Shown: piece by piece, positions 7,581 to 23,886 of the stretch
How positions within the stretch are numbered: position 1 is the first letter of the stretch
Layout of the letters: every line of letters starts with the position of its first letter
Origin: Planctomycetota bacterium
GTDB lineage: Bacteria > Planctomycetota > Planctomycetia > Pirellulales > Pirellulaceae
Assembly (NCBI GenBank): GCA_026692885.1
Contig: JAPLNJ010000576.1
Location: forward strand, 1-35,005
Direction: 5' to 3'
Length of the DNA stretch: 35,005 bases
Made by a program: the position numbers and the translations under genes
Notes under the pieces: generated by a model
What the model saw: only the letters and a program-made list of their open reading frames with translations
Database searches by the model: none
What the model was told of the DNA's origin: nothing

Positions 7581-10259
7581 ATGTCAAGACACCTTCTCCT
7601 CCTGTGTTTGGCGGCAGTGGCGCCGGCCACGGCGTACGCTGCGGATCTCGTCATCGCCGAAAAAGGCAAACACGACTACCAGATCGTGGTCCCTGACAAG
7701 TGCCACGACGACATTGTTGACCATTGGCTCCTGATAGCCGCGAAACTGATGCGGGCGACGTTCGAGAAGAACGGCTTCCCGATCGAGGTCGTCAAGGAGG
7801 CCGCGCGGGCGCAGGACAAGCACGGCATCTACCTCGGGGCGACCGCGTTCGCAACACAGCACGGAATCTCTGTCGAACGGTACGACGACTGGACTTACCA
7901 CATCAAGGCCGTCGGCCGGGACCTGATCATCGCCGGAAACGACAAGCAGGACCCGGTCTATACCGTCCGCGGCGCGAAGACTCCGCTGGCACTGCTGGGA
8001 ACGGTCAAGGGCGTCTGCGACTTCCTCCGCGAATCTGCCGGCGTGCGCTTTCTGTTCATGAACATGGACCAGAGCCTGTACGCCCCGCGGAGCGACGCAC
8101 GCGGCGCCTTCAACGCCGACGGCGCGTTGAAGATCGATACGCGAAGCATCGCTTTTCTGCCGCTGGAGAAGATCGCCGTGCCGGACGCGATCGACGTCAA
8201 GCAGGTGCCGCTGATGCGGGCCAGCTACGACCACTCGGACGAGACCTTCTACAACATCGCCATGAATTTCTTCCCGCGTCTGAGCAACGTCGAGGGGGCA
8301 GGAGTTGCCTGGTATGAGATCCTTCCGACGGCCAAGTTCGCCCAGAGCCATCCCGAATTCTATGCGCTCACCAAGGAAGGAAAACGCGCCTGCGACCTGA
8401 AGTGGGGCTTCGACGACCACGTGCCCTATTGCGTGACCGACAAGGGCGCGCAGGACCTCGTCTACCAGCAGGCCGAGAAGCTGCTTGCCTCCGGCGCAAA
8501 GACGATCTCGATCAATACCATGGACGGTTTTCGACTGTGCCAATGCAATTGCGACGAGTGCAACAAGCTGTTTGGCCTGCAGGCTGAATCCTGGGACCAG
8601 ATCCACGCCCGGGGCCGATCGGGCCAGCTCTGGCAGGCCGTGTTCCGCATCACCGAGCGCATCCGCGAAAAATACCCGGAGGCGAGGATCGTCCTGCTCA
8701 ACTACCAGGATACGCCCATCTCGGCGGACGTGATCAAGACCTTCCCCCAGAACGTGATTGTCAGGATTCAGTTCGCCTCGCAGCTTGATTTCGACCGGCT
8801 CAAGGGTGTCGAGTTTCCCGCCGGCATCTGCGGCTTCGAGGAGACCTTTACCGGGTTCGGCCAGGCCGGGCCGTATCTGCCGGAGCGCACGCCCGAGCAT
8901 ATGGCGGAAGTTGTCCAAGCCCTGGCCCGCAACAACGTGAAATGGTCCATGCGCGACGGGGCGATCGGCTACGTGCGCGGGATGCAGGCACCGGCCTACT
9001 ACGTCTACGGCCGCCTGCTGGACGACCCAGCCGCCGACTGGAAGGCCGTCCACAAGGAATTCTGCACCGCCGCGTTCGGCAATGCGGAACCTCAGATGAC
9101 ACAGTTCTTCGACCTCCTGCACAAGCAGCTCGCCATCTATTCGGATTTCTTCGGCGTCTTCATGCCCGCCTGGAGCCGCAAGTATTCCCGTTCCACCTAC
9201 CATGACAGCAAATGGCACGTGATGAGCATGTATCCGCCGGAATACTGTGCGGATGCGGACGCGCTGCTGACTTCGGCGGAGAAGGCGGCGAACGATCCGG
9301 ACGTGAAGGCACGGCTCCATCTGATCCGGATCGAGTTCGACTACATTCGGAAGATGGCGCGCATCTTCTTCCTGCAGAACGCCTGGACCATGAATCCCTC
9401 TCAGGCGAATCTGGACCCGCTGCTCGACGCGATCGACGATTGGCACGCGGATCTCGAAAGGCTCGCCGGAGGCACCGGCCGGAGCACCTTCCAGCCGCTC
9501 GGTGACTGGCCTGAAATGCGCCCGTTCAACGGCCATTTTTATCTGCATGCGGCGCTGGAAAACGAGGGTTACCAGCAGCAGTGGAATAAGACGTGCCTCA
9601 ACTGGGACACGCGGGCGATCCACGCCGGAATCCTCACGGACAAGCACCAGCTGAAGGTCGCCGCGGTCGACGCTCCGCCGACCATCGACGCCAAGGCGTG
9701 GGACAACGTGCCCGAATCGTTCTTCCAGGACCGCGGCGGCATGCCGTTCACCAACGTGAGGACCAGCATGAGAATCCTCCGCGACAGGGATGCCCTCTAT
9801 GTCCGTCTGGAAAGCCTGTATCCCGCGCAGCACCCGGAAGACATGTACGAGAAAGAGCCCGATGGGAATATCTTCACGCAAGAACACGTCGAGCTCGGAA
9901 TCATGCCGCCGGGTGCGGCGGGAAAGGTCTACCGGCTGGCCGTCAATCCGGTCGCAGGCTCGCACTACGATTCGGTCGTCGCGCCGCACCAAAGGAACGG
10001 GATGACCGAGGACGTGAAATGGAACGGCACGTGGGAGTTTGCCTTCAAGACCAACGTGGAAAAAGGCCCGTGGACTTTGCCCGGAAGAATCTGGACGGCG
10101 TGGTTCAGGATCCCGTTCGCCGATTTCGGTGCGAAGACGCCGGGTGCGGGGGAGACTTGGCAGTTCAACGCCGCCAGGAATAGGATCGGCCAGTACCTGC
10201 TCTGGAGCGACGCCCCGCGCGTGACTGATACCAAGGCGTTGGGTGCTCTCGTCTTCTAG
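7581..10259 (+). CDS. DUF4838 secreted protein with C-terminal CBM9-like domain
   Basis: The product has 892 residues from the ATG at 7581, with a clear signal peptide (MSRHLLLLCLAAVAPATAYA). It has the GH67-N-like first domain (YQIVVPDKC...AKLMRATF), then DUF4838: GVCDFLRESAGVRFLFM near residue 153, SHPEFYALT near 257, and LCQCNCDEC near 316, a cysteine cluster equivalent to that of the DUF4838 protein at 2398. From about residue 692 a CBM9-like (DOMON-type) domain begins: PPTIDAKAWDNVPES, ALYVRLESLYP, HVELGIMP, then TAWFRIPFADFG and WQFNAARNR. CBM9-type modules bind sugar chain ends, so this is probably an exported glycan-active protein, although the DUF4838 activity is not established. It differs from the first DUF4838 protein by this tail, so the two are unlikely to be a recent duplication. 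Confidence 0.83.
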   Translation: MSRHLLLLCLAAVAPATAYAADLVIAEKGKHDYQIVVPDKCHDDIVDHWLLIAAKLMRATFEKNGFPIEVVKEAARAQDKHGIYLGATAFATQHGISVERYDDWTYHIKAVGRDLIIAGNDKQDPVYTVRGAKTPLALLGTVKGVCDFLRESAGVRFLFMNMDQSLYAPRSDARGAFNADGALKIDTRSIAFLPLEKIAVPDAIDVKQVPLMRASYDHSDETFYNIAMNFFPRLSNVEGAGVAWYEILPTAKFAQSHPEFYALTKEGKRACDLKWGFDDHVPYCVTDKGAQDLVYQQAEKLLASGAKTISINTMDGFRLCQCNCDECNKLFGLQAESWDQIHARGRSGQLWQAVFRITERIREKYPEARIVLLNYQDTPISADVIKTFPQNVIVRIQFASQLDFDRLKGVEFPAGICGFEETFTGFGQAGPYLPERTPEHMAEVVQALARNNVKWSMRDGAIGYVRGMQAPAYYVYGRLLDDPAADWKAVHKEFCTAAFGNAEPQMTQFFDLLHKQLAIYSDFFGVFMPAWSRKYSRSTYHDSKWHVMSMYPPEYCADADALLTSAEKAANDPDVKARLHLIRIEFDYIRKMARIFFLQNAWTMNPSQANLDPLLDAIDDWHADLERLAGGTGRSTFQPLGDWPEMRPFNGHFYLHAALENEGYQQQWNKTCLNWDTRAIHAGILTDKHQLKVAAVDAPPTIDAKAWDNVPESFFQDRGGMPFTNVRTSMRILRDRDALYVRLESLYPAQHPEDMYEKEPDGNIFTQEHVELGIMPPGAAGKVYRLAVNPVAGSHYDSVVAPHQRNGMTEDVKWNGTWEFAFKTNVEKGPWTLPGRIWTAWFRIPFADFGAKTPGAGETWQFNAARNRIGQYLLWSDAPRVTDTKALGALVF

Positions 10260-21736: not shown

Positions 21737-22598
21737 ACAAGGCCAACAAGGCGGTTCCTCACACGCGCATCGTTCGTCAGGCGTGACCAAGGCTTGTGCC
21801 CTGAAAGGGCACCACCCGTTGCAGGTTGCGCCCTTTCAGGGCAGGGATTTCCGGGGGGCTTCCGATCCCAGGGCTGCGCCCTGGGCTATCGAATTACGCA
21901 CCTTTGGTGCGGACGTTCGGACGACCGCCAACAACCGCCGCCGACGATTGGAACCAATCATCGCCAATCACCGGCGTTCGCCGCCAACGGAGGCCAACCC
22001 GATAGCCCAGCGGCTGCCCTGGGAAAGGGGCCGACCCCGATCACGTGCCCGGGGCTGGTGTTCTCAATCCGCTCATAACCCAGGGCGGCGTTACGCGGCG
22101 AACGCCGCTCCGCTGGGCTGATTTGTGGCTGCCCCTAGCGGGGCGAAAACCTGTAGATCAGATCCGGGCGTTGTCCCGGGCTGTCATGTGCGCCCTTTCG
22201 GGGCAAGCAGCGAAACAGGCTCTCGCCCTTGCCATCGTGCCAATTTCCCATGTCATCCCCAACTTTGCATTGCCCTACCCGGACCGTTACCAGCACTAAC
22301 GGCAGTGCGCAACCTTACGATCAAGGCCCCAGACGGGTTCGTTTGACGATCGCCACTCGCCACTCAAATCGCGTCGCAGCACCAGCGCCGAACAATTTTC
22401 CCATGGTCGGCCGTGGCTGCGGCTGGATTGCCGTCCCGTAACCGTCATGGTAGACTCATCCCCGCTGACGCCTTGCTGATCAGCGGCCTGCAGTCCACTT
22501 TGGTCAGCCTTCAAACACCATGATCGCCGACGGCTTCGGGGCCATCTGCAACCAGTTCGGAAGGGCTCCAGAAGCTCGGCGTGCTCTGAGGTTATGAC
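21737..22598. repeat. Repeat-rich spacer, no convincing gene
   Basis: This stretch is a run of short palindromes: GCCCTGAAAGGGC (21798-21810), GCCCTTTCAGGGC (21830-21842), CCCAGGGCTGCGCCCTGGG (21867-21885), and further GGGC-type words at about 22080-22210, for example CCCTAGCGGGGC and GCCCTTTCGGGGC. Open frames here are low-complexity by-products. A weak promoter-like pair, TTGCCG (22428-22433) with TAGACT (22451-22456) at 17 bases, lies before the next gene. Confidence 0.5.
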
Positions 22599-23738
22599 AT
22601 GCCCTGCATGTGTATCCGGAAGTTAAGCGACTTCCTCCAAAGCCTGAAGAACTTGCCGCTGAACTTGCTGGCCGAATTGATCCCCCACTGCCCGGCCCAG
22701 CTGTCCACGTTGGGTGCGTTGGCGAGCGGCGTCGGGACGATGCAGGCCCTGGCGTCGGCCAGCGTCAGCGCCTCCGCGCGGGCCCAGTTGGCGGCGGCGT
22801 TGCATCTGGGGTTGCCACCTTTTCCGTTCCCGGCTCTCGATCTCGGCAAACTGGAAGCGATGGCCTTCCTGGCGGGCACGACCGGCACCAATGTATTTAG
22901 CGCCAAAGCCTCCCTGCAGCTGACCTCCTTAACGAGCTCGATCAACGTCCACCTACCCTCGGTGATGCAGCTGCTGATGGAGCTGCTGCAGCCCCTAACG
23001 GTGCCGCTCATGGACCTCCTGGCCCTGATCGGGGCCTGCGAAGCGGTGCAGGCGACGTTCGGCGTGAATCTGACACTGCCGGGCGCGATGCTGCAGTTAC
23101 GTGCGGCGCTGGCGGCGCGCGTCGGCCTGCACCTGGCCGCGACCGCCACGATGACGGCCAGTGCGGAACTGGTCGCCAACTTGGCCTCGCTGGGATCTTA
23201 CGCGCGGCTGATCAACGCGGCGGCCGCCTTGGGGTTCAACCTGGCCCTGCCCGGGATGGCCCTGCGTTTTTCTGCGGCCCTGCAAGTCGCCCTCGGTCTG
23301 CCGATTCCGCCGCTGAATGTGGACCTCTCCCAGCTGAACACGTTGGCCAACCTGTTGGCGGCTTTGACGCCCCTGCAGCGGAGTGTGTTCGGGATCAATT
23401 TGCGTCTGCCGGGCGCGTGGAAGTTGCTCGCGCTGGCGCTGCGCTCGCTGATGGTGAATCTGGAGGAGTCGCTGAATCTGGCGGCCACAGCCACGGCCAT
23501 GGCGAGTCTCTCGGAGACGGCGCGTCTTGGTTCGCAGCTCAGCGCGGTGCCCCCCGTGCTGGGCTTGGGCGTTAGCCTGCGCGCTATGCTGCACCTGAAT
23601 CTGCAAGGCTGGCCACTGCCCCAATTGCCAAACCTCGGTGCCCTGGCGGCGGCAGCCCGTCTGGGCGCCTCCACCGGCCTGAACGTCTTCGCCAACACTC
23701 CCTGCTCCGCAAGTTGCCCGGTGGGAAGGATGCTGTAG
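22599..23738 (+). CDS. Unrecognised Ala/Leu-rich repeat protein
   Basis: I do not recognise this family. The 379-residue product is about half Ala and Leu and has almost no charge, and no normal signal peptide (it starts MPCMCIRKLSDFLQ). It is built of about six units of 53-58 residues beginning near 40, 97, 154, 211, 264 and 321. The unit start is (F/L)G(V/I/F)NL.LPGA, seen as FGVNLTLPGA, LGFNLALPGM and FGINLRLPGA. Two unit types recur: one with LGLP.PPL..DL..L..LA.L (near 70, 230, 335), the other with LAATATMTAS or LAATATAMAS (179, 295). Cysteines cluster at the ends (C3, C5, C31; CSASC near 369). Helical, probably membrane-associated or self-assembling (inference). Possible start at 22608. 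The ends abut repeats. Confidence 0.6.
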   Translation: MPCMCIRKLSDFLQSLKNLPLNLLAELIPHCPAQLSTLGALASGVGTMQALASASVSASARAQLAAALHLGLPPFPFPALDLGKLEAMAFLAGTTGTNVFSAKASLQLTSLTSSINVHLPSVMQLLMELLQPLTVPLMDLLALIGACEAVQATFGVNLTLPGAMLQLRAALAARVGLHLAATATMTASAELVANLASLGSYARLINAAAALGFNLALPGMALRFSAALQVALGLPIPPLNVDLSQLNTLANLLAALTPLQRSVFGINLRLPGAWKLLALALRSLMVNLEESLNLAATATAMASLSETARLGSQLSAVPPVLGLGVSLRAMLHLNLQGWPLPQLPNLGALAAAARLGASTGLNVFANTPCSASCPVGRML

Positions 23739-23759: not shown

Positions 23760-23886
23760 TTAGGATCGGCGCATCAATAAGTGTCGGGTTTTCAAAGTAG
23801 TCATCACGCTCCGCGTGATGACATGTCGTCACGGCGGAGCGTGACGACTACTATTCTTGCGACAGTTATTGATGCGCCGATCCTTA
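23760..23886. repeat. 121-bp MITE with TTA target duplication
   Basis: The element core is 23763-23883. Its ends are an 18-bp perfect inverted repeat, GGATCGGCGCATCAATAA and complement. TTA flanks it on both sides (23760-23762 and 23884-23886), as a 3-bp target duplication. Inside is a second inverted pair built on GTAGTCATCACGCTCCGC (about 23797-23814, partner 23835-23852, one mismatch). No coding capacity. The right-hand TTA is the complement of the stop codon TAA of the neighbouring minus-strand glycosidase gene. Confidence 0.8.

What the first reader, a model, noticed from the sequence alone, without database searches (positions are those of the whole stretch)
22599..23738. Unrecognised protein made of six ~57-residue Ala/Leu repeats
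A 379-residue protein with almost no charged residues, unit starts such as FGVNLTLPGA, LGFNLALPGM and FGINLRLPGA near residues 154, 211 and 264, and two alternating unit types (LGLP.PPL and LAATATA). Terminal cysteines (C3, C5, C31; CSASC near 369) suggest cross-links or metal. It could be a self-assembling surface or membrane protein. It stands alone between a repeat-rich spacer and a MITE. I recognise no family.
Basis: seen in the sequence. Interest (0 to 1): 0.75.

Follow-up and report, generated by a model that had tools for sequence, protein, structure and literature searches.

The report
Type VI secretion-linked helical repeat protein
The gene is real and belongs to an unnamed family of Ala/Leu-rich, probably helical proteins with four fixed cysteines at their two ends; relatives in planctomycete bacteria often sit among genes of a type VI secretion machine, so it is probably a protein that this machine delivers or uses.

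Summary
The ORF at 22599-23738 (+) is a real gene of a planctomycete family for which I found no description. I collected 24 database proteins and members from 22 other genomes. Pfam, NCBIfam, PHROGs and PDB gave no convincing sequence hit, and no solved fold matched significantly.

Constant features: mostly 336-382 aa; a start M-x-C-x-C; an end C-x2-4-C; predicted helical hairpins with G-[IVF]-[ND]-L turns, mostly 50-59 residues apart. Net charge drifts from -44 to +17 while the four cysteines stay. 'Six 57-residue repeats' is partly right: three units are clear. 'Almost no charge' is overstated here (30 of 379).

The family is tied to type VI secretion (T6SS). All 19 genomes found by sequence carry the T6SS sheath gene; in 13 of 19 a T6SS gene lies in the fetched flank (VgrG, PAAR, sheath, ClpV/TssF/TssG). 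A recurrent neighbourhood is family gene, PAAR, methyltransferase, often PpiC. The window copy and its close clade have no T6SS neighbour.

Best reading: T6SS cargo/effector whose ends are clasped by four cysteines (confidence 0.45). Main rival: spike-assembly accessory. Delivery, toxicity and metal binding are inferred, not shown.

The parts
22588..22591 (+). GAGG, Shine-Dalgarno-like, 7 nt before the ATG
   Evidence: read in the sequence
22599..23738 (+). family gene, 379 aa, type VI secretion-linked helical repeat protein (orphan copy: no T6SS gene recognised in this window)
   Evidence: ORF; homologs; no T6SS domain in the 18 other window ORFs scanned
22605..22613 (+). codons of Cys3 to Cys5 (N-terminal half of the cysteine signature)
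   Evidence: both Cys invariant in the 21 rows of A8; motif in 41 of 45 rows
23058..23228 (+). repeat unit, residues 154-210 (FGVNLTLPG turn, then helices)
   Evidence: profile self-comparison; AlphaFold helices 163-182, 189-210
23229..23387 (+). repeat unit, residues 211-263 (LGFNLALPG turn)
23388..23558 (+). repeat unit, residues 264-320 (FGINLRLPG turn)
23703..23717 (+). codons of Cys369 to Cys373 (CSASC), C-terminal half of the cysteine signature
   Evidence: both Cys invariant in A6 and A8
23762..23884 (.). MITE-like element with 25-nt terminal inverted repeats (neighbour, not part of the gene)

Best explanation
A member of a planctomycete protein family, not described in the papers searched, that works with the type VI secretion system, most likely as cargo (an effector) carried on the VgrG-PAAR spike or in the tube. 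Proposed working: the chain is made in the cytosol without a visible signal peptide; PpiC isomerases encoded beside several relatives help its proline-rich turns to fold; it forms a chain of alpha-helical hairpins whose first and last segments are held together by four cysteines (metal or disulfide); the machine injects it, and its weakly charged hydrophobic helices then act on the target's membrane. Shown here: gene, family, cysteine signature, repeat motif, genome-level and locus-level T6SS association. Predicted only: the helical fold. Inferred only: the cysteine clasp, PpiC as folding helper, delivery, membrane action. The window copy would be an orphan used by a T6SS elsewhere in its genome.
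For: T6SS sheath gene (PF05943) in 19 of 19 genomes in which the family was found by sequence: 12 of 12 in a 199-genome draw where 84 have it (P 2e-5); 9 of 9 in a 397-genome draw where 147 have it (P 1.1e-4; 3 of these 9 are also among the 12); and G644. A VipB-family gene within 15 kb in 11 of 19 against about 1.5% expected per genome. Pfam-checked neighbours: VgrG (L037; L041; L026), PAAR, PpiC (L025, L018, L022, L046), TssB/TssC/TssK (L019), TssF/TssG (L021), VipA-VipB fusion (L022; L037). Six kinds of T6SS arrangement; on the tree (which lacks three of them) linked members stand in three places, and VgrG-linked G412 is sister to the window clade (96/93). Of 7 further sheath-fusion loci that I picked, 3 held a family member that the profile search had missed. 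Found so far in 16 of 84 T6SS genomes (a lower bound), which suggests an accessory rather than a core part. GRAVY 0.41-1.19, net charge -44 to +17.
Against: The window copy and its clade (G001, G002, G090) have no T6SS gene recognised nearby (contigs of G002 and G090 are only 10.6 and 7.1 kb), nor does the G379/G472/G462 clade; these flanks were read mostly by eye. No conserved immunity-like gene was noticed beside the family. Many members lack a Kyte-Doolittle stretch of transmembrane strength. No toxin domain (one member has Tox-MPTase5 at E 0.08, taken as chance). Related genomes are not independent, so the P values are too small. No whole genome is held for the window, so its own T6SS is unknown. 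The fold models are of middling confidence and the window's own model is weakest at both cysteine motifs.
Confidence: 0.45

Rival explanations
1. A T6SS spike-assembly accessory protein (chaperone or adaptor) that shields hydrophobic PAAR or VgrG surfaces during loading and is not itself a toxin, by analogy with the Tvp/DUF2169 proteins.
For: Encoded near PAAR, a methyltransferase and often PpiC in a recurrent neighbourhood; no immunity-like neighbour noticed; PAAR proteins have hydrophobic patches and chaperones in the Tvp system (PMC13373197, abstract and found passages); hydrophobic helices could mask such patches.
Against: Copies without PAAR nearby (window clade and others, read by eye); in L037 VgrG is followed by the family gene with no PAAR seen in the fetched flank (read by eye; a small gene could be missed); no DUF2169 match in 25 members.
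Confidence: 0.3
2. A cell-surface, storage or self-assembling structural protein unrelated to secretion; the T6SS neighbours are coincidence or shared mobility.
For: Low charge, Ala/Leu richness, Ala/Ser/Thr blocks in P0012 and P0017; 6 of 19 sequence-found genomes, and the window, without T6SS neighbours.
Against: 11 of 19 with a VipB-family gene within 15 kb; 19 of 19 genomes with the T6SS sheath gene; no signal peptide visible by eye.
Confidence: 0.12
3. A component or partner of a divergent contractile apparatus built on the fused VipA-VipB sheath protein, rather than cargo of the ordinary T6SS.
For: A fusion-type sheath gene lies beside or within 3 kb of the family gene in G127, G148, G172, G197, G037, G412 and G644; a match to it at E<=1e-50 exists in 10 of 13 sequence-found family genomes of the 199 draw against 24 of the 71 other T6SS genomes (P 0.005; the 24 include G179, G185 and G191, which also hold the family).
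Against: No match at E<=1e-50 in G086, G193 and G167; in 4 of 7 fusion loci examined I found no family member by motif scan; canonical TssE/F/G/ClpV genes are also adjacent in several loci.
Confidence: 0.1
4. Spurious ORF or decaying gene.
For: A few truncated or internally shortened relatives (P0007, P0008 = L002 copy, P0011).
Against: Conserved frame, codon-position bias, start signal, invariant cysteines.
Confidence: 0.02

Closest known systems
T6SS effectors and other VgrG/PAAR-linked cargo
   Same: Apparently accessory gene found beside vgrG, PAAR, hcp, sheath or clpV genes; no signal peptide visible by eye
   Different: No toxin domain, no immunity-like partner noticed; an Ala/Leu-rich predicted helical repeat of mostly 336-382 aa with four terminal cysteines; delivery untested
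Tvp accessory proteins (TvpA, DUF2169; PMC13373197)
   Same: Encoded near PAAR; might handle hydrophobic spike parts
   Different: No DUF2169 match in 25 members; copies without T6SS neighbours exist
ClyA/Smh/Ahl alpha pore-forming toxins
   Same: All-alpha, hydrophobic helices; appear among the sub-significant Foldseek rows
   Different: Foldseek E about 0.55-1.3, TM about 0.1; no PDB sequence match; no evidence of kinship
Designed alpha/alpha toroids (6xr1, 6xr2, 8e0m and kin)
   Same: Helical-hairpin repeats that close on themselves; recur among the sub-significant rows

Membership tests
T6SS-associated protein | Carrier genomes encode a T6SS | tested here: met
   sheath gene in 19 of 19 sequence-found genomes; the window's own genome is not held
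T6SS-associated protein | Gene lies among T6SS genes | tested here: inconclusive
   T6SS gene in the fetched flank in 13 of 19 genomes, none recognised in 6 of 19 nor in the window
T6SS core component | Present in nearly all T6SS genomes | tested here: inconclusive
   found in 16 of 84 T6SS genomes of the 199 draw, which speaks against a core part; but only 10 or 5 candidates per genome were scored and at least 4 of those 16 were missed by the first search
T6SS effector | Exported by the T6SS and active in a target cell | not testable with these tools
   needs secretome and competition assays
T6SS effector (antibacterial) | Cognate immunity gene next door | tested here: inconclusive
   none recognised by eye among neighbours of about 20 loci; no systematic search made
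Tvp/DUF2169 PAAR chaperone | DUF2169 domain | tested here: not met
   no match in 25 members at E<=0.1
ClyA-type alpha pore-forming toxin | ClyA-type fold | tested here: inconclusive
   Foldseek E about 0.55-1.3 only; models of middling confidence
Closed alpha/alpha toroid | Circular arrangement of helical hairpins with joined ends | tested here: inconclusive
   model 2 has strand residues only at 3-4, 70, 325 and 359-360, which would fit contact of the ends; pairing not seen, as no coordinates are returned; residues 361-370 average pLDDT 53; the window's model shows no strand
Integral membrane protein | Several transmembrane segments | tested here: inconclusive
   Kyte-Doolittle 19-mers >=1.6: one in the window protein, none in many members, four in G379, seven in G365a; no transmembrane predictor was run

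The most novel reading that the evidence does not exclude
The family is a new kind of T6SS payload: a closed ring of about six helical hairpins whose ends are locked by a four-cysteine (metal or disulfide) clasp, with surface charge free to drift from strongly acidic to basic to almost none. It is loaded with PAAR, helped by a dedicated prolyl isomerase, and opens in the target to insert hydrophobic helices into its membrane.
Probability: 0.15. Interest if true: 0.8.

Novelty: new variant of a known kind. Interest (0 to 1): 0.57.

Why it matters
T6SS is known mostly from Proteobacteria (recalled; the 2009 survey PMC2660368 named Rhodopirellula baltica as one of only two exceptions then). This gives planctomycetes, for which I found no effector described in the listings searched, a family-level candidate for what the machine carries or needs, with a simple signature (M-x-C-x-C ... 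C-x2-4-C, Ala/Leu-rich, mostly 336-382 aa) and recurrent neighbours (PAAR, methyltransferase, PpiC) that can be tested directly. The near absence of charge in some members is also unusual for a protein without clear transmembrane segments.

Tried and rejected
Sequence libraries: Pfam (window alone, then the 25 members of A6), NCBIfam (window, L018 and L019 members), PHROGs (25 members), PDB sequences (single and profile): no convincing hit. PP-binding at E 1.3 in the window protein, HTH_37 at 0.008 in one member, HTH_30 at 0.02 in four and Tox-MPTase5 at 0.08 in one were treated as chance. PADLOC was not run.

Phage or plasmid origin: no tblastn match in the phage or plasmid collections; in IMG/VR none of 93 pattern matches encodes a relative.

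C-terminal CaaX lipidation: a few members end in C-x-x-x (CTIL, CAFL, CHAF, CQFL, CRFF; read in the sequences) but most, including the window, do not; rejected. A redox CxxC site: the spacing of the C-terminal pair varies from 2 to 4; not favoured.

A first HHalign self-comparison inside one search was run with a wrong option and gave nothing usable; repeated, no off-diagonal match. My codon-table gene caller performed poorly and was replaced by a length-greedy ORF list, which still picked antisense ORFs at the family gene in L046-L048. An early guess that the 1821-aa neighbour in L037 was TssM was dropped: its NCBIfam hits are caspase-like and adhesin-repeat, both below cut-off (Pfam). The fused-sheath association was kept as a rival only: modest statistics.

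Not in print: searches (listings seen; one search found no paper) and two papers consulted, PMC13373197 (outline, abstract, found passages) and PMC2660368 (one found passage); no description of this family seen. Most subscription papers are outside the library.

Full report
The thing itself. The ORF 22599-23738 (+) codes for 379 aa, starts 7 nt after GAGG, and has the codon-position GC pattern of three neighbouring genes. The library of about 5.8 billion proteins gave 24 relatives in three searches: one is 98% identical, the others 61% or less in the search alignments (up to 65% in alignment A6). Those that carry a source name are 'hypothetical protein'; two names include an organism (Rhodopirellula sp., Pirellulales bacterium). 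Each search scored only the 8,000 or so candidates sharing most words. DNA differences between the window and its nearest loci concentrate at codon position 3 (window vs L001 148/87/192), and in a close pair dN/dS is 0.135. The gene is real and under purifying selection; the window pairs themselves are near saturation at synonymous sites (pS about 0.6), so only the bias, not a rate, should be read from them.

Anatomy. Across the 21 diverse rows of A8 the invariant columns are M1, C3, C5, A89, G96, N116, L211, G212, P237, C369 and C373. Of 45 rows (fragments and some duplicates included) 41 begin M/V-x-C-x-C and 41 end in C-x2-4-C; those lacking the first are P0002, P0007, P0011, P0014, those lacking the second G365a, G365b, P0011, P0013. 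The turn motif G-[IVFLM]-[NDEHQ]-[LMIVP] is eight times commoner than in shuffled sequences and 68 of 123 spacings are 50-59 residues. In the window protein three units (from 154, 211, 264) are clear; the first 150 residues and the end are weaker. Net charge ranges from -44 (P0024) to +17 (P0023), with only 2 charged residues in the 317-aa G472 member: charge is free to drift while the cysteines are not.

Context in other genomes. A profile search of 199 genomes of the family around G001 found the gene in 12; 397 of the class gave 9, of which 6 were new; 392 of the phylum gave 2, of which 1 was new, G644: 19 genomes found by sequence. The tool scored at most 10 or 5 candidates per genome, so these are lower bounds: G037 was missed in the first draw, and three more members (G179, G185, G191) turned up when I looked beside fused-sheath genes (7 loci picked, 3 positive, 4 negative by motif scan). 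That look was directed by T6SS genes, so these three are left out of the linkage counts.

All 19 genomes carry the T6SS sheath gene: 12 of 12 in a draw where 84 of 199 do, 9 of 9 where 147 of 397 do (3 genomes overlap), the six new ones again, and G644. A VipB-family gene lies within 15 kb in 11 of 19 (null about 1.5% per genome; P 6e-16 if genomes were independent, which close relatives such as G148 and G172 are not). Counting any T6SS gene in the fetched flank (about 10 kb a side where the contig allowed) gives 13 of 19: G193, G167, G127, G148, G172, G197, G087, G086, G077, G412, G037, G365, G644. For G167 only the ClpB-type ATPase was Pfam-checked; its TssG and TssF were read by eye. The 6 without are G001, G002, G090, G379, G472 and G462; G002 and G090 lie on contigs of 10.6 and 7.1 kb, and these flanks were mostly read by eye.

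Arrangements. (i) L025 (G087): TssE, TssF, TssG, ClpV, family, PpiC, PAAR, methyltransferase on one strand (TssE, ClpV-type ATPase, PpiC, PAAR and methyltransferase by Pfam; TssF and TssG by eye, like those Pfam-checked in L021). Parts of the same set, rearranged, stand in L018, L021-L024 and L046-L048 (not every gene checked by Pfam; PpiC was checked in L018, L022, L025 and L046 and not seen in the ORF lists of the others). (ii) L019 (G077): sheath genes, Hcp-like genes (one of three checked), ImpE, family, with TssK beyond. (iii) L037 (G412): fused sheath, VgrG, then the family gene 105 nt downstream. (iv) L026 (G086): PAAR, methyltransferase, VgrG, family. (v) L041 (G365): VgrG about 6 kb from two tandem family-like ORFs, one found by the profile, one by motif, and a sheath gene about 5 kb away. 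(vi) L061 (G644): family, then a sheath-type gene on the same strand (the fused form is my reading). On a tree of 36 rows the linked members stand in three places (2 label changes at least), and G412 is the sister of the window clade (96/93). The G086, G365 and G644 members are not on that tree, and letter make-up is uneven among the rows, so deep forks are soft.

The window. None of 18 other window ORFs that I chose as likely genes has a T6SS domain at E<=1e-3: among them are glycosyltransferases, DUF4838, GDSL and YdjC-like proteins. In L001 the family gene follows a small ORF that ends 10 nt before its start; in L002 an internally shortened 210-aa copy overlaps the stop of a WD40-like protein (named by eye). 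So the window clade looks like orphan copies.

Mechanism. The T6SS link is the firm part. Cargo is preferred to a core part because the gene was found in only 16 of 84 T6SS genomes (lower bound), turns up beside different T6SS genes and also as orphans. Against cargo stand the lack of a noticed immunity-like neighbour and the recurrent company of PAAR and a prolyl isomerase, which an assembly accessory would also explain; the Tvp proteins show that such accessories exist for PAAR (PMC13373197, abstract and passages), but none of 25 family members matches DUF2169. Membrane action is inferred from hydrophobicity (GRAVY 0.41-1.19) alone, and many members lack a stretch of transmembrane strength.

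Novelty. T6SS in Rhodopirellula baltica was noted in 2009 (PMC2660368, one passage). I found no description of this family (searches; listings). It is a new family attached to a known machine: a new variant of a known kind.

Noticed in passing
L025:7509-8585, L018:6291-7358, L021:11607-12698, L022:11473-12552, L024:17108-18202, L026:9966-11063: A methyltransferase gene follows the PAAR gene by 5-7 nt in these six loci. In L025 it has a weak Trm112-like Zn ribbon hit and resembles the OvoA C-terminal 4-mercaptohistidine methyltransferase domain (TIGR04345, E 8e-32, below its cut-off). The PAAR partner has a His-rich stretch (PHCHAPIHP), so PAAR histidine methylation is conceivable.
   Followed up: partly
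L022:7280-8815, L037:4989-6563 and others: A fused VipA-VipB sheath protein (both Pfam domains in one ORF); a match at E<=1e-50 in 34 of 199 genomes, 33 of them spanning both parts; sometimes beside the family gene.
   Followed up: partly
L018:8941-9327, L022:10480-10857, L025:9050-9328, L046:12678-12965: Small PpiC-type prolyl isomerase genes inside T6SS loci, beside this Pro-rich family.
   Followed up: partly
window:23762-23884: MITE-like element with 25-nt terminal inverted repeats and an inner inverted repeat.
   Followed up: no
window:16609-19374: TPR protein with a glycosyltransferase family 41 domain, followed by two more glycosyltransferase genes; L001 also has a TPR-like protein (8189-9514, by eye) just before the family gene.
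   Followed up: no
L002:7-2807: WD40-like protein (by eye) whose stop overlaps the start of a 210-aa family copy that has lost its middle part but keeps both cysteine motifs.
   Followed up: no
L037:12246-17711: 1821-aa protein with a caspase-like (EACC1-associated) N-terminal hit, E 3e-10 but below cut-off, near the VgrG-family pair.
   Followed up: no
L026:14452-15966: Longer family form with tandem PALATPGMEL repeats after the usual length, cut by the contig end.
   Followed up: no
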